The position numbers and the translations under genes were made by a program. Under the pieces are notes generated by a model that searched no databases, had not been told where the DNA came from, and worked only from the letters and a program-made list of their open reading frames with translations. Positions 11,664-22,731 of a stretch of 64,000 bases of DNA are shown in pieces; the stretch's first letter is position 1; the number at the start of each line of letters is the position of its first letter. The DNA comes from Asanoa sp. WMMD1127. Lineage in GTDB: Bacteria; Actinomycetota; Actinomycetes; Mycobacteriales; Micromonosporaceae. The stretch covers positions 5,456,001-5,520,000 of the forward strand of contig NZ_JARUBP010000001.1 of assembly GCF_029626225.1 (NCBI RefSeq). The letters run 5' to 3'.

Positions 11664-13991
11664 TCAGCTGTTGGCGAGCAGCCGCCAGCGGTTGTCGGCG
11701 GTGCCGTTGTCGGACTCCTGGACGGCCTCCGCGCCCCAGGCGGTGGAGCCGTTGAGGATGCCCAGCAGCTTGCCGCTGTTGACGTTGCGGATCCGGTAGG
11801 TGCCGTCGCCGTTGGCGAGCAGCTGCCAGCGGTGGTCGGCGGTCCCGTTGTCCGCCCACTGCAGGACCCGGGCGTTGTCGGCGGTCGACATGTTCTCGAC
11901 GCCGAGCACCTTGCCACTGTGGACGTTGCGCAGCTTGACCGCGTCGCCGTCCGGCACGACGACCCAGTTGTGGTCGGCGGTCCCGGTGTCGCCCCACTGG
12001 ACGGCCCGCCCACCGTCGGCGGTGGACATGTTCTGGACGCCCAGGACCAGGCCGGTGCCGGCATTGAGCAGGCGGTGGCTGCCGGCGCCGCCGCCGACGT
12101 TCCAGTAGACGGTGTAGTTGAAGCCGTGGGCGTCCTGGAACGGGCCGAGGTTGACGGTGCTCCCGTTGGCGGTGGCGGTGAACGCCAAAGATCCCGTCCC
12201 GGTACGGGCGATGGAGGAGGGGACCAGCGCGGGCAGGGCGGTCAGGGCGCTGTTGCCGTAGTTGCCGCACAGGACGACCGGCCCGTAGGTCGCCGCCGCG
12301 ACGCTCGGGTTGTCGTTGGCCGCGAGCATCGTCACCCGCATCGGCAGCCGCACGACGATCGTGTCCCCGGCGGCCCAGGTGCGGGTCACGGTGGCGTAGG
12401 TGCCCGGCGTGGTGGCGACGTTCTGGAGGGCGCCGTTGACCGTGACGGTCGCGCCACTCGTCCACCCGGGGATCCGGATCCGGATGCTCCACGAGCCGCT
12501 CATCGTGCCCGACAAGCTCAGCGTGGTGGTGTCGCTGACCGGGTAGCTGGTGTTCTGGGTGACGACCACGCCCCGTTGCGACCAGGTCAGCACCGACGGC
12601 ACGAACAGGTTCACCGTCAGCGTGCTGCCGTTGTGGAAATAGATGGAGTCCATCAGCTTCGTGTTGGTCTCCAGACCGGTGCCCTGGCAGCACCAGAACG
12701 AGTTGTAGTCGGTGCTCCAGGTCCCGCCGCCCCACGCCGGCCCGACACCGCGACGTCCGCCCGGGCGCAGCGGGGTGAAGTAGGTGATGTGACCGTTGGC
12801 GTCGGCGGGGTTCTGGGCCCCGACGAGGTGGTTGAGCAGGGCCCGCTCGTAGTAGTCGACGTAGGCCACGCGGTCGGGGGTGAGCAGCCACAGCTCGCGC
12901 GTCAGCTTGAGCATGTTGTAGGTGTTGCACTGCTCGCAGGTGTCGTTGGTCAGGTACCCGGCGATGGCGTTCGGCGCGCGGAAGTGCTCGGCCTGGCTGT
13001 TGCCGCCGATGGCGTACGTGTGCGCCCCAACGGTGATGTTCCAGGCGTTGGTGGCGATGTCGCGGTAGCGCGTGGTCCCGGTCGCCTTGAACTCGCGGGC
13101 CGCGCCCACCCACTTGGGCACCTGCGTGTTGGCGTGCAGGCCGTTGAGCTGGTCCTGGCCCGCCGCCAGTGGGTTGAACACCGCCGCGTGGTCGAACCGC
13201 TGTGCCACCGACAGCCACCGCGCGTCGCCGGTCTGCTGGTAGATGTCGGCGAGCACCTCGTTCATGCCGCCGAACTCCGTGCCGAGCATGGCCTGCATCG
13301 CGCTGGAGCTCAACCGGGCGGTGCGGGTGTCGACCCAGCCGGCCAGCGCCAGGAGCACGGTCCGCGCCTGCGTGTTGCCGGTGTGGCGCCAGACGTCGAG
13401 CAGCCCGGCGAGCGTCTTGTGCACGCAGTAGTAGGGCACGTTGCCGTTCGACAGCGTCCGGGCCTCCAGCGCGGTGAAGTCGGACTCCGGGAAGCCGGAC
13501 AGGTATCCGGTGGCGAACCCGGCGGCTCCGTTGTTGGCCTGGCACCGGGCCAGCTCGGCGACCAGGTAGGCGGCCTTGTCCCGGCAGACGGTGTCACCGA
13601 GCACCGCGTAGGCGTGCGCCCAGGCGGTCAGGAAGTGACCCTGCACGTGGCTGCGGAACGGGAAGCTGGGCGCGTCCCAGCCGCCGTTGGGAGCGGCGCC
13701 GTTGGTGGACAGGCGGTGGTTGGCGCGGAAGTTGTAGAGCAACCGGTCCACGTTGACGGCGCGCAGGTAGTTCAGCGTGCGGTTCTGGTTGTCCAGCAGG
13801 CGCCCGGACGTGAGCCGCACCTGGCCAAGGTCGAACGGGTACGCCGCGACACCGATGTCCGCCCGCGCGGGCGGGAGCGTGGCCGCCGCGGCCGGACCGG
13901 CGTCGGTCAGGCCGGTGCCGGTCACGGCGACGGTCGCGGTCGCGCCCGCCGCCTGCAGCATCCGACGCCGGCTGATCGGCAGAGCTGGCAC
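11664..13991 (-). CDS. Secreted beta-L-arabinofuranosidase, GH127/GH146 (DUF1680) with C-terminal lectin repeats
   Basis: The 775-residue protein starts at GTG 13991 behind a GAGGAG site, with twin-arginine signal ISRRRMLQAAGATAT. The catalytic (alpha/alpha)6 barrel contains GHFLTAWAHAYAVLGD, EFGGMNEVLADIY, the zinc/nucleophile motifs TCEQCNTYNMLKL (Glu353, Cys355) and FWCCQGTGLE (Cys434, Cys435). These match the Glu and three Cys of characterised GH127 enzymes, where the first Cys of the pair is the nucleophile. The CNTYNMLKL form looks closer to GH146. A beta-sandwich follows, then about 130 residues of ricin-like repeats (LGVQNMSTADGG, LGVENMSTADNA, LGILNGSTAWGA). It lies 14 bp after the GH43 gene in one operon. 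Confidence 0.88.
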   Translation of the reverse strand: MPALPISRRRMLQAAGATATVAVTGTGLTDAGPAAAATLPPARADIGVAAYPFDLGQVRLTSGRLLDNQNRTLNYLRAVNVDRLLYNFRANHRLSTNGAAPNGGWDAPSFPFRSHVQGHFLTAWAHAYAVLGDTVCRDKAAYLVAELARCQANNGAAGFATGYLSGFPESDFTALEARTLSNGNVPYYCVHKTLAGLLDVWRHTGNTQARTVLLALAGWVDTRTARLSSSAMQAMLGTEFGGMNEVLADIYQQTGDARWLSVAQRFDHAAVFNPLAAGQDQLNGLHANTQVPKWVGAAREFKATGTTRYRDIATNAWNITVGAHTYAIGGNSQAEHFRAPNAIAGYLTNDTCEQCNTYNMLKLTRELWLLTPDRVAYVDYYERALLNHLVGAQNPADANGHITYFTPLRPGGRRGVGPAWGGGTWSTDYNSFWCCQGTGLETNTKLMDSIYFHNGSTLTVNLFVPSVLTWSQRGVVVTQNTSYPVSDTTTLSLSGTMSGSWSIRIRIPGWTSGATVTVNGALQNVATTPGTYATVTRTWAAGDTIVVRLPMRVTMLAANDNPSVAAATYGPVVLCGNYGNSALTALPALVPSSIARTGTGSLAFTATANGSTVNLGPFQDAHGFNYTVYWNVGGGAGSHRLLNAGTGLVLGVQNMSTADGGRAVQWGDTGTADHNWVVVPDGDAVKLRNVHSGKVLGVENMSTADNARVLQWADNGTADHRWQLLANGDGTYRIRNVNSGKLLGILNGSTAWGAEAVQESDNGTADNRWRLLANS

Positions 13992-14005
13992 GTGGGCCTC
14001 CTCGC

Positions 14006-16057
14006 TCAGGGTGTGGTGAGGTCGAAGCGGCGCACGGTGACGGACCCGCCGAGTGCCTGGGTGGCGTAGTTGAACATCCCGAACCGGTAGCCCATGAAGA
14101 ACTGCCAGGCGTTGTTGAGCGTGAACGCGGGACCGAGTCCGGTGAACGTGGTGCCGTCGGTGCTGTAGGAGAAGCGGGCCTGGCGACCGGACCCGGGGCG
14201 GATGTCGGCATTCACCCGCAGCCAGATCCGGCCGCCCGACACCGGCACTCCGGCCTGTTCCGTGCCGGTGCTCGTGGTGTTCCAACTGCTGTTCATCGTC
14301 AGGTTGTTGGCCATGACGACGCGGGTCGCCCCGCTGTCCCGGCGGACGCCGATCCACGCCGACGAGTCGCGCAGCATGGCCAGGCCCGCTCGGTCGCCGT
14401 CGGCCATGGTGGAGTAGTCGAGCTCGATGGTCGCGGTGGACGACGGCCCCTGGATGCGGTGCGTCAGCGTGTTCCGGGCCGCGTACAGGTCGTTGGTGAC
14501 CGTCGCGGTCTGCAGCCGCAGGCCGTCGCCCGCCGACCACCTGCTGTTGTCGGGGTTGTGGTTCCACTCCCAGCGATGCCCGAGCGTCGTGGCGCCGAAC
14601 GTGTCGGCGCCGGTCATCGGTTGCACGGTGCGTCCCGACGCGGGGATGTTCGGCTTGGGATAGGTGGTGCCCCACGCGCCGTTGACGGTCTGGACCGTCG
14701 GCCAGCCGTCGGCGCTCCACGAGATCGGCGCGAGGGCCGGCATCCGGCCGCCGGGGTACGCGTCGACGAAGGCCATGTAGTACCAGTCACCGTTCTGCGT
14801 CTGGACGAGGCCGCCCTGGTGCGGCACGCCGCCGCCGGCGATCGGGCCGGGCATGTCGAGCAGGACCTGGCGCATCTCGTACGGGCCGAACGGGCTGCTC
14901 GACTTGAGCACGTACTGCCCGTTGGCGGGCCGGGTCAGCCAGATGTAGTAGCTGCCGTTCCGCTTGTAGAAACGGGCACCTTCGAGGGTGCCGACGCTCG
15001 ACGGGGTCTGGAACACCTGCTGTGCCCGCACCTGGCTGAAGCCGTCGGCCGAGAGCTGGGCGACACTGATCGTGCCGTTGCCGTAGGCGACGTACATCGT
15101 GTCGTTGTCGTCGACCAGCAGCCCGGCGTCGTAGTAGCAGTTGTTGATCTGTGCCCGCTTCTGCCAGGCCCCGTCGACCGCCGCGGCGGTGTAGACGTAG
15201 GTGCGGTTGAACTCGACGCAGCCGATCCAGTAGTAGGTGCTGTTGCTGCGCCGGTAGTTCAGCGTCGAGGCCCAGATGCCCTTCACGTAGGCACGGCCGC
15301 CGGTGAGGTTGTACGCGTTGGAGCCGAAGTCGAGACTGGGCACCGAGTGGCCGGCGTACTCCCAGTTGACCAGGTCGTAGGAACGCAGGATCGGCGCGCC
15401 GGGGGAGTAGTGCATGGTGGAAGCCGAGTAGTAGTAGGCGTCGCCCACCCGGATGATGTCGCCGTCGGCGAAGTCCTGCCACACCACCGGGTTGGTGTAG
15501 GTCCCGGTGCCGCCCGACGAGCCGACCTGGACGAGCTGCCATTGCTGGTTGGCGCCGCCCCAGTCGGCGTACTGCACGACGTTGGCGCCGTCGGACGTCG
15601 ACGCGTTCTGCACCTCGACCACCTTGCCGCTGTTGCGGTTGACGAGCCGGACGTAGCCGCCGGCCGAGTCGGCGAGCCGGAACTGCTGGTTGGCACCGTT
15701 GCCGTCGGCCCACTGCACGACGGCCGCGCCGTCGGCGGTCGAGCGGTTGTAGACGTCGAGCACCTTGCCCGAGTGCCGTGACTTCAACCGGTAGTAGCCG
15801 CCGCCGGAGTCCACGAACTGCCACTGCTGGTTGGCGCCGTCGTTGCGGGCCCACTGCGTGATCCGCGCCCCGTCGGTGGTCGCGAGGTTGTAGACGTCGA
15901 GTGCCTTGCCGCTGTTCCGGTTGACCAGCACGTACCACGCGCTGGTGTCCACCGTCGCCGCCGCGGCGCCGGTCGCGCCGAGACCGAGCAGCACCCCGCT
16001 GGCCAGCGCTGTCACGATCACGGCAGCCAGTCGGCGCCGCCACGCCCGAGTTCTCAT
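14006..16057 (-). CDS. Secreted GH43 beta-xylosidase/alpha-L-arabinofuranosidase with N-terminal ricin (CBM13) module
   Basis: The 683-residue protein starts at ATG 16057 after a GGAAGGAG site. A Sec signal (RRRLAAVIVTALASGVLLGL) is followed by a ricin trefoil (about residues 36-180; [27 protein letters not shown]). The five-bladed GH43 domain begins at TYTNPVVWQDFADGD, with the base aspartate in DFADGD, the pKa-tuning Asp in DAGLLVDDNDTMYV and the acid Glu in TLEGARFY. A C-terminal concanavalin-like GH43_C2 domain follows (DTFGATTLGHRWEWNHNPD). It is the first gene of the GH43-GH127-GH95 operon, and a LacI-type operator lies about 60 bp upstream. Whether it prefers xylose or arabinose ends is not readable. 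Confidence 0.9.
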   Translation of the reverse strand: MRTRAWRRRLAAVIVTALASGVLLGLGATGAAAATVDTSAWYVLVNRNSGKALDVYNLATTDGARITQWARNDGANQQWQFVDSGGGYYRLKSRHSGKVLDVYNRSTADGAAVVQWADGNGANQQFRLADSAGGYVRLVNRNSGKVVEVQNASTSDGANVVQYADWGGANQQWQLVQVGSSGGTGTYTNPVVWQDFADGDIIRVGDAYYYSASTMHYSPGAPILRSYDLVNWEYAGHSVPSLDFGSNAYNLTGGRAYVKGIWASTLNYRRSNSTYYWIGCVEFNRTYVYTAAAVDGAWQKRAQINNCYYDAGLLVDDNDTMYVAYGNGTISVAQLSADGFSQVRAQQVFQTPSSVGTLEGARFYKRNGSYYIWLTRPANGQYVLKSSSPFGPYEMRQVLLDMPGPIAGGGVPHQGGLVQTQNGDWYYMAFVDAYPGGRMPALAPISWSADGWPTVQTVNGAWGTTYPKPNIPASGRTVQPMTGADTFGATTLGHRWEWNHNPDNSRWSAGDGLRLQTATVTNDLYAARNTLTHRIQGPSSTATIELDYSTMADGDRAGLAMLRDSSAWIGVRRDSGATRVVMANNLTMNSSWNTTSTGTEQAGVPVSGGRIWLRVNADIRPGSGRQARFSYSTDGTTFTGLGPAFTLNNAWQFFMGYRFGMFNYATQALGGSVTVRRFDLTTP

Positions 16058-16116
16058 CCGAGCTCCTTCCGAGATGGACTCCGGGCATGCGCCAGCGCCG
16101 CGGCACGGGACCGCGT

Positions 16117-16130
16117 TGTTAGCGCTCACA
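16117..16130. promoter_or_regulatory. LacI-type operator upstream of the GH43 operon
   Basis: TGTTAGCGCTCACA is a 14-bp near-palindrome with the central GCGC core typical of LacI/CebR-family operators; one base pair is unsymmetrical. It lies 60 bp before the GH43 ATG and closely resembles the perfect site in front of the GH10 gene, suggesting one repressor controls both operons. Confidence 0.65.
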
Positions 16131-16308
16131 CCAGTCATCAGGCAGTGGGCACAGCCAATTCTTGGTGTGGGAGATTTATGCCCTCATCGAGGTGTGACGA
16201 TGTTGCCAGATTATTTCGGCGGATATCAAGTGGTCCGGTGGAGGAAACTGAAGCGCGCTTTTCTGTTATATCGACGGGCCCGCGCTGGTCGCATGGCCGC
16301 CGCGCGGG

Positions 16309-17727
16309 TCACCGCAGGGCGGCCCGGACGCGGAAGGAGGAGTCGGCGCCGACGGGGACCAGATCGACCCAGAGCTCCCCATGCCGGTGGCGGAGATGCC
16401 AACCCGGGTAGTTGGCGGACTCGAGGGCGACCGAGCCCGGCGCCACGCCCGGGCGGGCGCAGAACGTGGCGTCGCCGCGGAACAGGGCGCTGCCGTCCGG
16501 CCAGCTCAACCGCACCCGCCAGGACATGTGCCGCAGGTAGCGGCCGTCGCGGGCCCGCAGCGTGAAGCAGTCGGGATCGGCCAGGCCCGGCGTCACGTCG
16601 AACGCCGCCGACTGCCCGCCGGCCTCGTCGACCGGGACCAGCACCCCGACGCTCGCGGCGATGGCCGCGTACCGGCCGGGTCGATCAACCGACTCGAGCG
16701 AGACGGGTCCGGGTGGGAGTCCGGCGGCGTTCGGCGACGGGGCAGGAGGAGCGGCCACGGTCGGCGCCGGCGGCGTCGGTTCGGGCGACGACTGTGGCAC
16801 CAACAGGGCCGCACCCGCGGCGATCACGCCGGCCGCCAGCAGCGTCAGGGCGGGACGCGTGCTGACGGTGCCGGCGAGCTTGCCCAACAGCGCGCGGCCC
16901 GGCGACGCGACGACGCCGGCCGGCGCCGCCTGGACCTTGCCGAGGGTCGCGGCCGTCACGACCGCGGGCACCGGCAGCAGTGCGGCCGGGAGCAGCCGAT
17001 CGGTGGGAATCAGGCCCGCCGTCGTGCCGCGGCACGCCGGGCAGGACCGCACGTGCCGGCTCAGGCGCTTGCGCCACAACGGTCCCGGGACCCCGTTCCA
17101 GCCGGCGCAGGCCGCGCGCAAGATCGCGCACCGTGGCCGCGCGTCCAAGGCGACGACCACGGCCCGGCTCACCTCGAGTTGCTGGCGTGCGCGCTGGAGC
17201 CGAACACCCGCGTGGGCGGCGGACAGGCCGGCCGCCTCCGTCAGCTCCGCCCGGGTGAGCTGGCCCGCCTGCTCGAGCCACCACAGCGAGACCAGCATCC
17301 GGTCCGCCGGGTCGAGCCAGCGGCTGGCCCGGGCCACCTGCCGGCGTTGACCGGTGAGGGCTACGTGCAACATCGTCCGGTCGTCCACGTCGGCGTCCGG
17401 GTCGGGCAGGTCGGCGGCGTCGGCCAGCGGCACGGTGCGGCGTTCGGCGATCCCGCGGCGGTGCAGGTGCGTGCCGACCTGGCGGACGGTGATCGCCAGC
17501 AGCCACGACCGGAAGCTGGCAGGCTCGCGCAGAGCTGGCAGATCGCGTACGGCCCGCAGCATCGTCTCCTGCACGACGTCGTCGAGATCCGGATCGCCCC
17601 GCAGCGCCCGGCCGACCACGGTGTAGACCAGCGGCAGGAACCGCACGACGAGCTCGTCGCGCGCGGCGTGGTCGCCGGAGCGCGCCGCGGTGACCAGCTC
17701 CGTGACGTCCACACCGGAGGCGCGCAT
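16309..17727 (-). CDS. Membrane-anchored ECF sigma factor with built-in zinc anti-sigma motif and extracytoplasmic AbfB (CBM42-like) domain
   Basis: The 472-residue single chain has a sigma-70 region 2 (about residues 25-85: DDVVQETMLRAVRDL, SWLLAITVRQVG) and region 4 (about 130-185: LTEAAGLSAAHAGVRLQRAR). Next comes a H225-x3-C229-x2-C232 motif (SRHVRSCPAC), as in zinc-binding anti-sigma factors. One transmembrane helix (about 291-310, LTLLAAGVIAAGAALLV) and a proline-rich linker follow. Residues 341-472 form an AbfB domain with the repeated VSLESV, RYLRHM, ALFRGDATFC, ALESANYPGWHLRHR pattern. AbfB domains bind arabinofuranose side chains, so the protein probably senses arabinoxylan outside the cell and frees or activates its own sigma part. 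ATG 17727 has a GAGGTGG site. It sits between the two hydrolase operons. Confidence 0.88.
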   Translation of the reverse strand: MRASGVDVTELVTAARSGDHAARDELVVRFLPLVYTVVGRALRGDPDLDDVVQETMLRAVRDLPALREPASFRSWLLAITVRQVGTHLHRRGIAERRTVPLADAADLPDPDADVDDRTMLHVALTGQRRQVARASRWLDPADRMLVSLWWLEQAGQLTRAELTEAAGLSAAHAGVRLQRARQQLEVSRAVVVALDARPRCAILRAACAGWNGVPGPLWRKRLSRHVRSCPACRGTTAGLIPTDRLLPAALLPVPAVVTAATLGKVQAAPAGVVASPGRALLGKLAGTVSTRPALTLLAAGVIAAGAALLVPQSSPEPTPPAPTVAAPPAPSPNAAGLPPGPVSLESVDRPGRYAAIAASVGVLVPVDEAGGQSAAFDVTPGLADPDCFTLRARDGRYLRHMSWRVRLSWPDGSALFRGDATFCARPGVAPGSVALESANYPGWHLRHRHGELWVDLVPVGADSSFRVRAALR

Positions 17728-17908
17728 CTCCACCTCGCGAGCCTAGCCCTCGAATCCGTTGCCGGTAGGTTACATCTTGACGTCCCGCGCATCGATAAGT
17801 CACAGTGCGATGAGGGCACGCGATTAACGTCGGAAGGGTTCGTCCGGGCAACGGACCCGATAGCCGGCGCACTCAATCATCTTTATTTCGACCGATTGCT
17901 CCGCGTAA

Positions 17909-21086
<3,178 letters not shown>

Positions 21087-21150: not shown

Positions 21151-21184
21151 CCGGTCCCCGCGGGCGTGACCCCGCGGGGACCGG
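21151..21184 (+). terminator. Perfect 14-bp hairpin between GH27 and GH62
   Basis: CCGGTCCCCGCGGG pairs perfectly with CCCGCGGGGACCGG around the 6-nt loop CGTGAC. It lies 64 bp after the GH27 stop and 44 bp before the GH62 start, so it may end or attenuate the GH10-GH27 transcript. Confidence 0.7.
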
Positions 21185-21228
21185 CAGCCGGGCAGCGCGG
21201 TCAAGCCCCAGGAACAAGGAGGAGAGCC

Positions 21229-22731
21229 ATGTCAGATCTCGTCACGGGCGCGCCACCGACGCGGCGACGGCGATGGTTGCCGCGGATCGCCGCCGCCGGC
21301 GTGGCGGCGGTGCTGGCCGGCACGGGCGCGGCGGCGGTGGTCGCCACCCCCGCCGCCGCGGCGACGGTCGACACGACCGCGTGGTACGTGCTCGTCAACC
21401 GCAACAGTGGCAAGGCCCTGGACGTCTACAACCTGGCCACCAACGACGGCGCCCGGATCGTGCAGTGGGCGCGCAACAACGGCAACCAGCAGCAGTGGCA
21501 GTTCGTGGACTCGGGCGGCGGCTACTACCGGCTGCGATCGCGGCTGTCCGGCAAGGTGCTCGACGTCTACAACTTCTCCACCGCCAACGGCGCCAACATC
21601 GTGCAGTGGAGCGACCACAACGGGACCAACCAGCAGTTCCGGCTCGCCGACTCGGACAGCGGCTACGTCCGGCTGATCAACCGCAACAGCAACAAGGTGG
21701 TCGAGGTCCAGGGCGCCTCGACCGCCGACGGCGGCAGCATCGTGCAGTACGACGACTGGAACGGCAGCAACCAGCAGTGGCAACTGGTCCGCGTCGACGG
21801 CGGCGGGGGCAACCCCGGCGGGCCGTGTGCGCTGCCGTCCACGTACCGCTGGAGCTCGACCGGTCAGTTGGCCAACCCGCGCTCAGGCTGGGTGTCGCTC
21901 AAGGACTTCACCCACGTGCCCTACAACGGCCGGCATCTCGTCTACGCCACCACGCACGACAACGGCACGTCGTGGGGCTCGATGAACTTCAGCCTGTTCA
22001 CGAACTGGTCCGACATGGGCTCGGCCAGCCAGGTGGCCATGCCCTTCTCGGCGGTGGCCCCGACGCTGTTCTATTTCGCGCCACGCAACATCTGGGTGCT
22101 CGCCTACCAGTGGGGCGGCCCGGCGTTCTCCTACCGGACGTCGAGCGACCCCACCAACGTCAACGGCTGGTCGGCGCCACAGACGCTCTTCTCCGGTAGC
22201 ATCTCCAACTCCGGCACCGGTCCCATCGACCAGACCCTCATCGCGGACAGCACGAACATGTACCTGTTCTTCGCCGGCGACAACGGCCGGATCTACCGCG
22301 CGAGCATGCCCATCGGCAACTTCCCGGGCAGCTTCGGGTCGAACTACACGACGATCATGACCGACTCGACGAACAACCTGTTCGAGGCGGTCCAGGTCTA
22401 CAAGCTCCAGAACGAGAACCGGTATCTGATGATCGTGGAGGCCATCGGCGCACAGGGCCGGTACTTCCGCTCGTTCACCGCCACCAGCCTGGGTGGCTCG
22501 TGGACGCCGCAGGCGACCACCGAGAGCAACCCGTTCGCGGGCAAGGCCAACAGCGGCGCCACCTGGACCAACGACATCAGCCACGGCGACCTGGTCCGCA
22601 GCACCGCCGACCAGACGATGACCGTCGACCCCTGCAACCTGCAGCTGCTCTACCAGGGCCGCGCTCCCAACTCCGGCGGCGACTACGGCCTCCTGCCGTA
22701 CCGCCCCGGCGTGCTGACCCTGCAACGCTGA
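21229..22731 (+). CDS. Secreted GH62 alpha-L-arabinofuranosidase with N-terminal ricin (CBM13) module
   Basis: The 500-residue protein starts at ATG 21229 after an AAGGAGGAG site. It has a long signal with twin arginines ([20 protein letters not shown]), then a ricin trefoil (about residues 47-188; [25 protein letters not shown]) and a GH62 domain beginning [13 protein letters not shown]. Family residues are visible: the base Asp in SLKDFTHV, the second Asp in [12 protein letters not shown] and the acid Glu in [10 protein letters not shown]62 enzymes remove arabinofuranose side chains from arabinoxylan, complementing the GH10 xylanase. Its end is 1 bp from the end of the convergent dioxygenase gene. 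Confidence 0.93.

What the first reader, a model, noticed from the sequence alone, without database searches (positions are those of the whole stretch)
16309..17727. One-polypeptide transmembrane sigma factor with an arabinose-binding outer domain
Seen: a single frame holds ECF sigma regions 2 and 4, a HxxxCxxC zinc anti-sigma motif (H225, C229, C232), one transmembrane helix, a proline-rich stalk and an AbfB domain. Known: AbfB (CBM42) binds arabinofuranose side chains, and ECF groups with fused membrane or sugar-binding tails exist in actinobacteria. Inference: the protein senses arabinoxylan outside the cell and controls the hydrolase operons on both sides, needing no separate anti-sigma factor. 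How the sigma part would be released from the membrane (proteolysis or conformational change) is an open, possibly new mechanism.
Basis: partly seen in the sequence, partly recalled or inferred. Interest (0 to 1): 0.88.

Follow-up and report, generated by a model that had tools for sequence, protein, structure and literature searches.

The report
One-piece sugar-sensing transmembrane sigma factor
A soil actinomycete carries a single protein that most likely feels plant arabinoxylan outside the cell with one end and switches on the matching digestive genes with the other; the protein layout is a known kind, but its family of swappable sensors, its predicted DNA switches and their paired arrangement look new.

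Summary
In detail: one unbroken frame (16309-17727/17733, minus strand) encodes ECF sigma regions 2 and 4, a zinc anti-sigma motif, a membrane segment, a Pro-rich stalk and an AbfB/CBM42 domain. Many relatives have the same single frame. The architecture is in print (ECF52/ECF53; SCO4117), so the protein alone is a new member of a known kind.

Added here by computation: (1) a modular family: one cytoplasmic chassis carries different outer domains, and the domain predicts the neighbours (AbfB with GH10/GH62/GH43 in 30 of 41 loci, other classes 0 of 35; beta-helix with pectinesterase 8 of 14, others 0 of 62). (2) A bipartite promoter-like motif with a shared -35 block and a class-specific -10 block. 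(3) The AbfB-class motif marks a dispersed arabinose regulon; the own genome has two strict sites, one in this locus and one before a GH54 arabinofuranosidase. (4) In AbfB loci the motif often forms back-to-back pairs at helically phased spacings (27 of 28 Streptomyces gaps), one arm reading antisense into the sigma gene; this is unexplained.

Ligand binding, release and transcription are untested.

The parts
16309..17733 (-). Transmembrane ECF sigma factor with zinc anti-sigma motif and AbfB/CBM42 outer domain (474 aa from GTG 17733; 472 aa from the likelier ATG 17727)
17440..17706 (-). Sigma region 2 (about residues 10-98)
   Evidence: Pfam Sigma70_r2 28-93, helices 10-99
17143..17394 (-). 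Sigma region 4 (about residues 114-197)
   Evidence: TIGR02937 to residue 187, helices 114-197
17032..17130 (-). Zinc anti-sigma motif C202-x24-H227-x3-C231-x2-C234 (residues 202-234)
   Evidence: invariant in 84 of 84 sigma ORFs, window included
16783..16857 (-). Predicted membrane segment (about residues 293-317)
   Evidence: hydrophobicity; low-confidence helix 295-309
16333..16701 (-). AbfB/CBM42 beta-trefoil (residues 345-467)
16260..16291 (+). M1 motif TTTCTGTTATATCGACGGGCCCGCGCTGGTCG, predicted AbfB-sigma recognition site; reads antisense towards the sigma gene's 3' end
   Evidence: one of two strict matches in the 8 Mb genome
16203..16230 (-). P2, promoter-like element before GH43 (pattern CTTG-N-GAAA-NNN-TCTGGCAA)
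16117..16130 (-). LacI-type operator-like TGTTAGCGCTCACA (as read on the + strand) upstream of the likely GH43 start (about 16057)
   Evidence: read; related words enriched
17911..17926 (+). LacI-type operator-like palindrome ATGTGAGCGCTCACAT upstream of GH10
   Evidence: read; related words enriched
14006..16138 (-). GH43 + GH43_C2 with ricin-type lectin; likely regulon member
11664..13991 (-). GH127 beta-L-arabinofuranosidase with ricin-type lectin (Pfam on the longer frame 11664-14720; end 13991 is the gene caller's)
17966..19435 (+). GH10 xylanase with ricin-type lectin
19446..21086 (+). Melibiase (GH27-type) with ricin-type lectin
21166..22731 (+). GH62 arabinofuranosidase with ricin-type lectin

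Best explanation
A membrane-anchored one-polypeptide ECF sigma factor of the ECF52/53 kind. Shown by sequence: sigma2-sigma4, a Cys-His-Cys-Cys zinc anti-sigma motif, a membrane segment, a Pro-rich stalk and a CBM42 trefoil in one chain. Inferred: with no substrate the fused zinc domain holds the sigma part inactive at the membrane; binding of arabinofuranosyl side chains outside leads to release, most likely by stepwise proteolysis; the freed sigma then directs RNA polymerase to promoters of the form AAA-N-[TC]GTTAT-N17-RGTCG before arabinoxylan-degrading genes, here and elsewhere in the genome, while LacI-type repressors add a second, intracellular condition. Sister sigma factors with the same cytoplasmic chassis but other outer domains probably read other glycans and use the same -35 block with different -10 blocks.
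For: Domain content. Sensor matches enzymes: 30 of 41 AbfB loci have a GH10/GH62/GH43 catalytic domain within 10 kb versus 0 of 35 GH128-like and beta-helix loci (p 2.5e-12); pectinesterase in 8 of 14 beta-helix loci versus 0 of 62 (p 1.6e-7); in named genomes, Streptomyces AbfB-type 27 of 28 versus 1 of 16 other Streptomycetaceae loci, remaining genera 18 of 27 versus 2 of 9. Motif found without a seed: GTTA-N19-GTCG in 18 and its reverse in 21 of 97 upstreams, each in 2 of 449 background upstreams. Strict form: 44 hits in 27 of 42 AbfB-class loci, 0 of 40 others; GH128-class form in 20 of 21 loci; beta-helix form in 6 of 14 loci, 0 of 68 others; none of the three patterns occurs in reversed sequence. 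Co-occurrence: strict motif in 31 of 36 genomes known to hold the AbfB sigma versus 3 of 32 genomes with GH62 but no sigma homologue (p 1.3e-10). Of 13 fetched sites outside the sigma loci, 9 read into a Pfam-recognised enzyme gene or operon (GH54, GH127 twice, GH10, GDSL, GH27 operon, GH43, GH62, GH10-GH62) and 1 into a protein of the esterase-like cluster, within 300 bp. Precedent: RsgI5 of C. thermocellum is an anti-sigma factor with a CBM42.
Against: No binding, cleavage or transcription data. In the window the motif points away from GH43 and the GH10 side has none. 30 of 63 AbfB-class intergenic hits have no gene start within 300 bp in sense; only 30 of 42 AbfB-class loci have an intergenic hit at all, and 7 of 40 others do too. 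Pairs and phasing to a second promoter-like element fit an upstream activator site better than a plain promoter. 10 of 41 AbfB loci lack the enzymes even in the wider test. 5 of 36 AbfB-sigma genomes lack the strict motif. zf-HC2 is below its Pfam cut-off. The beta-helix motif also precedes a DNA polymerase IV gene in 2 loci. The class-specific patterns were read off the same loci in which they were counted. Loci are related, so p-values overstate independence.
Confidence: 0.66

Rival explanations
1. The M1 sites are not promoters in AbfB loci but paired upstream sites where the sigma-like protein (free or still at the membrane), or two holoenzymes, act as an activator of the neighbouring P2 promoter (TTGA-type).
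For: 18 divergent pairs with both members at 10 bits or more, 0 convergent, 4 in tandem; spacings 69, 81, 82, 90, 91, 100-104 (12 pairs), 143; 10.5-bp phase p about 4e-6. Sense sites phased to P2 at about 26, 37, 47, 59, 70, 79 bp (the 15 of 22 distances under 100 bp, p 8e-5; all 22, p 0.008). Inverted -35 pairs after the sigma gene in 27 of 28 Streptomyces loci at 58/59 or 49 bp, 0 of 28 reversed.
Against: Related GH128-class and beta-helix-class sites are in sense before a gene, 42-122 bp from the start in those hits whose start is clear, as promoters should be. The DDVVQ core of region 2.2 (region name recalled) is conserved. The under-100 cut was chosen after seeing the data; the shared spacing near 102 could be common descent.
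Confidence: 0.2
2. The motif is the operator of an unrelated regulator that is co-inherited with the sigma gene and the hydrolases; the sigma controls something else.
For: M1 and P2 occur with LacI-type operator-like words; LacI-family genes lie in 7 of 41 AbfB loci.
Against: The -35 block is shared and the -10 block changes with sigma class, in loci that have few other gene families in common; the motif is rare in GH62-bearing genomes without the sigma (3 of 32).
Confidence: 0.12
3. The outer trefoil senses self glycans or only tethers the protein to the wall, and the link to hydrolases is incidental clustering of carbohydrate genes.
For: SCO4117, an ECF52 sigma with another carbohydrate module, controls development (PMC5826349, abstract and passages).
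Against: Sensor-specific linkage in each of 11 genera sampled and in Streptomyces; the controls are sister sigma genes, in part from the same genomes.
Confidence: 0.07

Closest known systems
ECF52 / ECF53 sigma factors of actinobacteria (SCO4117 of Streptomyces coelicolor)
   Same: One chain with ECF sigma, zinc finger, membrane segment(s), Pro-rich stretch and a carbohydrate-binding (some: glycosyl hydrolase) domain; proteolytic release proposed (PMC5826349 abstract and passages; PMC8999054 and PMC10766802 passages)
   Different: SCO4117 has another carbohydrate module (smart00776) and a developmental role; its proposed motif CSGYN-17-SRHA differs from M1; substrate-matched enzyme neighbourhoods, class-specific -10 blocks and phased pairs were not in the passages read
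SigI/RsgI systems of Clostridium thermocellum, above all RsgI5 (CBM42) and RsgI6 (GH10)
   Same: Outer polysaccharide-binding domain, membrane helix, control of a sigma that drives hydrolase genes; the CBM42 of RsgI5 is homologous (E 3.2e-23 by profile); passages of PMC4711584 and PMC12203970
   Different: Sigma and anti-sigma are two proteins there; SigI is another branch of sigma70 (recalled); RsgI is described as cleaving itself outside the membrane (PMC12203970 passage), for which I did not search here
IutY of Pseudomonas putida (ECF243)
   Same: Sigma and membrane-bound anti-sigma fused in one protein, released by proteolysis (PMC8999054, passage)
   Different: Cell-surface signalling for the siderophore aerobactin; no sugar-binding domain is described in the passage
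RsrA-type zinc anti-sigma domains (recalled)
   Same: Cys-x(about 25)-His-x3-Cys-x2-Cys ligand order (recalled)
   Different: Free-standing redox-sensing protein (recalled)

Membership tests
ECF sigma factors | Regions 2 and 4 only, matching the ECF model | tested here: met
   TIGR02937 57.8 bits over cut-off 42.9; Sigma70_r2 34 of 34 members of A1, window included
ECF52/ECF53 layout | C-terminal zinc motif, membrane segment(s), Pro-rich stretch, carbohydrate-binding domain | tested here: met
ECF52/ECF53 layout | Restricted to actinobacteria | tested here: inconclusive
ECF52 or ECF53 as sequence groups | Match to the published group models | not testable with these tools
   The classification papers are not held
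Zinc anti-sigma (ZAS) | HxxxCxxC plus an upstream ligand | tested here: met
   C202, H227, C231, C234 in 84 of 84, window included
Zinc anti-sigma (ZAS) | zf-HC2 (PF13490) at its cut-off | tested here: not met
   10.9 bits, cut-off 22.2
Zinc anti-sigma (ZAS) | Binds zinc and inhibits sigma | not testable with these tools
   bench work
CBM42/AbfB | Beta-trefoil with family match | tested here: met
   PF05270 108.8 bits over 22.8; 3kmv TM-score 0.88 by target length
CBM42/AbfB | Conserved His/Asp of the arabinose pockets (residue roles recalled) | tested here: met
   R401, H402, D421 invariant in 34 of 34 members of A1, aligned with YIRH...DATF of arabinofuranosidase B
CBM42/AbfB | Binds arabinofuranose | not testable with these tools
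   bench work
SigI/RsgI | Separate anti-sigma with RsgI_N and SigI-type sigma | tested here: not met
   Single chain with an ECF sigma; no RsgI_N among the Pfam matches

The most novel reading that the evidence does not exclude
The AbfB-class sigma acts in pairs from back-to-back, helically phased sites set between its own gene and the hydrolase operon. One arm serves the enzymes, and the other drives antisense RNA into the sigma gene or serves as the second foot of a tethered or paired complex: a sigma factor used partly like a looping activator, with built-in feedback, conserved across Streptomyces and Micromonosporaceae.
Probability: 0.22. Interest if true: 0.85.

Novelty: new variant of a known kind. 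Interest (0 to 1): 0.62.

Why it matters
It turns a class of fused sigma factors with almost no experimental work into a testable system. The outer domain predicts the substrate, the motif predicts the regulon, and the -10 block differs by sister sigma, so a small set of actinomycete genes could be read as a code from polysaccharide to promoter. It parallels the Clostridium SigI/RsgI biomass sensors but in one polypeptide. If the phased promoter pairs work as they look, they would be an unusual way for a sigma factor to act and to damp itself.

Tried and rejected
Frameshift or fusion artefact: rejected. The 10-mer CGATGAGGGC shared by the GH43 and GH10 upstreams as the regulon motif: dropped; in the GH43 upstream it lies where relatives carry TCGATGTGAGCG, so it is probably a decayed operator. 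The first gene call (36) and the second (37) missed GH127; the caller was changed again (38). Neighbour clusters can merge proteins through shared ricin lectins, so the test was repeated with catalytic domains only: AbfB 31 of 41 became 30 of 41, controls 1 of 35 became 0 of 35, pectinesterase 10 of 14 became 8 of 14. Left out of those two tests: 2 Lcl_C, 1 CAP-like, 1 unknown, 1 truncated GH128-like, 1 AbfB-like without outer domain (o68), and the second sigma ORF of L079 and L082; L012 was fetched but holds no sigma hit at 1e-20. The 80 loci were picked from the top of the list, not at random. One search left out 52 of 88 sigma-homologue genomes whose outer domain I had not seen or which are not AbfB; 20 of those 52 have a site. 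The PWM was trained on the AbfB loci scanned, so that comparison is circular; the seedless search (46), the reversed-sequence counts (printed before that script failed on writing a file; redone without them as 51), the genome-wide counts (64) and the Streptomyces loci (86) are not. Upstream regions can overlap where genes diverge. Of the 28 Streptomyces loci 26 have a PWM hit, but only 24 of these lie in the sigma-hydrolase gap (positions). Of the other 27 AbfB loci, 19 have a hit; several are the same contigs as the training set. P2 is not strictly tied to the sigma: genome G001, without a homologue, has two. Region 2.3-2.4 differs more between classes than region 4.2, as the shared -35 would predict, but it also varies more within classes, so this is weak. 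The pair pattern, applied to the gap after the sigma gene in the Micromonosporaceae sample, holds in 8 of 43 AbfB genes, 0 of 21 GH128-like and 0 of 14 beta-helix genes, so the layout is much less constant there than in Streptomyces. Two sites in genomes without the sigma (G013, G023) were not fetched.

Full report
What is there. The minus-strand frame 16309-17733 is open from GTG 17733 (ATG 17727, preceded by GAGGTGGAG, is the likelier start) to a stop at 16309. It carries sigma region 2 (E 7.8e-12), a match to the ECF sigma model TIGR02937 over residues 24-187 (E 1e-15), and an AbfB domain (residues 345-467, E 2.9e-31). Hydrophobic segments lie at about 247-265 and 293-316. The AlphaFold2 model gives confident domains but pTM 0.40, so domain packing is not interpreted. 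Foldseek puts the trefoil next to CBM42A of Clostridium thermocellum (3kmv) and the CBM42 listed as 9fnk; AlgU and sigmaE chains come at ranks 22 and 29. A profile search names 9fnk as the anti-sigma-I factor RsgI5 (E 3.2e-23).

Where it is. The window is position 5456001-5520000 of an 8 Mb chromosome. A genome labelled same genus, G052, has a contig of the same length (903,329 bases) as NZ_FNQB01000004.1 of Asanoa ishikariensis, with the sigma at the same place, so the host is most likely an Asanoa species (inference). Neighbours are GH95, GH127 and GH43 on one side and GH10, a melibiase and GH62 on the other, all six with ricin-type lectin domains.

A modular family. 88 of 150 genomes of the same family hold relatives at E 1e-20 or better, up to 10 per genome, which is also the number scored per genome. 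I took 80 loci of about 20 kb from the top of that list plus the own-genome paralogue. With the window they hold 84 sigma ORFs in 82 loci. Their outer parts fall into AbfB 43, Glyco_hydro_cc 21 (here called GH128-like, a name recalled), right-handed beta-helix (Pel9A-like) 14, Lcl_C 2, and four singles: one CAP-like (E 0.001, under its cut-off), one with no Pfam match outside, one truncated GH128-like, one without an outer domain. The sigma and zinc parts are the same chassis throughout. A scan of named genomes found 55 AbfB-type among 80 sigma ORFs, 28 of them in Streptomyces.

Sensor predicts neighbours. Counting catalytic domains only, within 10 kb, one sigma per locus: GH10, GH62 or GH43 beside 30 of 41 AbfB loci and 0 of 35 GH128-like or beta-helix loci (Fisher 2.5e-12); pectinesterase beside 8 of 14 beta-helix loci and 0 of 62 AbfB and GH128-like loci (1.6e-7). 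In the named genomes (6 kb flanks) 27 of 28 Streptomyces AbfB-type loci and 1 of 16 other Streptomycetaceae loci have these enzymes; in the remaining genera 18 of 27 and 2 of 9. The three exceptions (L233, L217, L227) are ORFs of 350-419 aa that may be broken AbfB types. By cluster assignment, each of the 11 genera sampled has at least one AbfB locus with the enzymes. Loci within a genus are related, so the p-values overstate the number of independent events.

A recognition motif. Comparing 97 upstream regions of sigma and hydrolase genes in AbfB loci with 449 other upstreams, without a seed, the best dyads were CGAC-N19-TAAC (21 versus 2) and its reverse GTTA-N19-GTCG (18 versus 2). The 47 intergenic sites show further conserved bases that were not in the seed: A/T at -5 to -3, T/C at -1, T at +4, and G/A before GTCG. 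Strict matches: 44 hits in 27 of the 42 AbfB-class loci, 0 in the other 40. The GH128-like class has GT[TA]AT-N-[CG]GTCTCC upstream of its own sigma chassis in 20 of 21 loci (2 of the 60 loci of other classes, plus the truncated GH128-like locus L094). The beta-helix class has GTTA-N-CATCTAC: 7 hits in 6 of its 14 loci and none in the other 68; 4 of the 7 are beside a pectinesterase start, 2 before DNA polymerase IV genes and 1 before a GH25 gene. None of the three patterns occurs in the reversed loci. The patterns were read off these same loci, so the class contrast is partly circular. A shared -35 block with a class-specific -10 block is what one expects of sister ECF sigma factors; I take this as the strongest reason to call the motif the sigma's own site.

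A dispersed regulon. The pattern WWWNYGTTAY-N17-RGTCG occurs 152 times in 150 genomes against 28 for the reversed pattern. It is present in 31 of 36 genomes known to carry the AbfB sigma, in 5 of 62 genomes without a sigma homologue, and in 3 of the 32 of those that have GH62 (p 1.3e-10). The own genome has two strict sites: the one in the window and one 284 bp before a GH54 alpha-L-arabinofuranosidase, followed by two more ricin-lectin proteins. I fetched 13 sites outside the 20-kb sigma loci in seven genomes; some are only 13-28 kb away. Within 300 bp, in sense, 9 read into GH54, GH127 (two), GH10, GDSL, a GH27-GH43-GH62 operon, GH43, GH62 and GH10-GH62 genes (two overlap an over-long predicted start), and 1 into a ricin-lectin protein of the esterase-like cluster (L150). 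Of the other three, L156 reads into an AHSA1-like ORF with GH62 divergent; L158 lies 60 bp inside the start of a GH2-like ORF with GH10 divergent; L157 has no sense gene within 2 kb.

An unexplained layout. In AbfB loci the motif often occurs as back-to-back divergent pairs. Of 20 pairs found, 18 have both members at 10 bits or more, with spacings of 69, 81, 82, 90, 91, 100-104 (12 pairs) and 143 bp; there were 0 convergent pairs and 4 in tandem. The 10.5-bp phase has p about 4e-6. In Streptomyces, 27 of 28 gaps after the sigma gene hold the inverted pair of -35 blocks at a spacing of 58 (21), 59 (2) or 49 (4); 0 of 28 when reversed. The same pattern holds after only 8 of 43 AbfB sigma genes of the Micromonosporaceae sample, and after 0 of 35 GH128-like and beta-helix genes. 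One arm reads antisense into the 3' end of the sigma gene; with the PWM this was seen at 11 of 44 AbfB-class sigma genes, the window's included. Sense sites are also phased to a second element, P2 (CTTG-N-GAAA-NNN-TCTGGCAA; 60 matches in 35 of 150 genomes, none with the reversed pattern): 22 distances p 0.008, the 15 under 100 bp p 8e-5. A plain promoter explains neither the pairs nor the phasing.

How it most likely works. Shown by sequence: the parts and their order. Inferred from the known ECF52/53 and RsgI systems: inactive at the membrane, release on binding arabinofuranose outside, most likely by proteolysis. PMC8999054 (passages read) lists ECF48, ECF52 and ECF53 as expected to work so. 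PMC5826349 (abstract and passages read) reports that a strain with the sigma part of SCO4117 alone has a milder phenotype than the deletion. PMC10766802 (passages read) says that predicted ECF52/53 hydrolase and carbohydrate-binding domains had not been validated experimentally. LacI-type palindromes at 17911-17926 and 16117-16130 suggest a second, intracellular control of both operons.

What is and is not new. The layout is known. Searches for AbfB with sigma factor and ECF and for Micromonosporaceae with ECF sigma factor and carbohydrate-binding found 0 papers; the search with CBM42 found one genome paper that has the terms in separate passages. Further searches (listings, with the papers named here read in passages) showed no report of the substrate-matched classes, the class-specific -10 blocks or the phased pairs. 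The key classification papers are not held, so prior mention cannot be excluded.

Noticed in passing
window 17911-17926 and 16117-16130: LacI-type operator-like palindromes upstream of GH10 and of the likely GH43 start (about 16057); the second lies inside the over-long GH43 frame that starts at 16138.
   Followed up: partly
L011:8815-11016 (own genome, C1 about 6.233 Mb): Sister sigma factor with a Glyco_hydro_cc (GH128-like) domain outside; its own site AAATCTGTTATCC...GTCGTCTCC lies just before the likely start of the chassis.
   Followed up: yes
G000:C1:5023961-5024926 (L003): A more distant own-genome relative (35%) that by eye has a zinc motif, a hydrophobic segment and a different outer part.
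   Followed up: no
L060:9467-11725: Sister sigma factor with an outer domain of about 400 residues that no Pfam model matched at 0.01.
   Followed up: no
L211, L219, L220, L225, L240 (Streptomyces), L068: Sigma ORFs that end soon after the membrane region; several Streptomyces share a similar short form, so either frameshifts or real short variants.
   Followed up: no
L110:10769, L120:10697: The beta-helix-class motif precedes DNA polymerase IV (IMS) genes, an odd target for a pectin-type sensor.
   Followed up: no
L086, L096 and 6 other GH128-like loci: The GH128-like class is not next to the hydrolases tested (0 of 21); 8 of 21 lie by luciferase-like monooxygenases (cluster), which may point to a housekeeping rather than a feeding role.
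   Followed up: partly
L082:8097-11977, L079:5971-10941: Two AbfB-type sigma genes sit close together in one locus, divergent in L082 and in tandem in L079.
   Followed up: no
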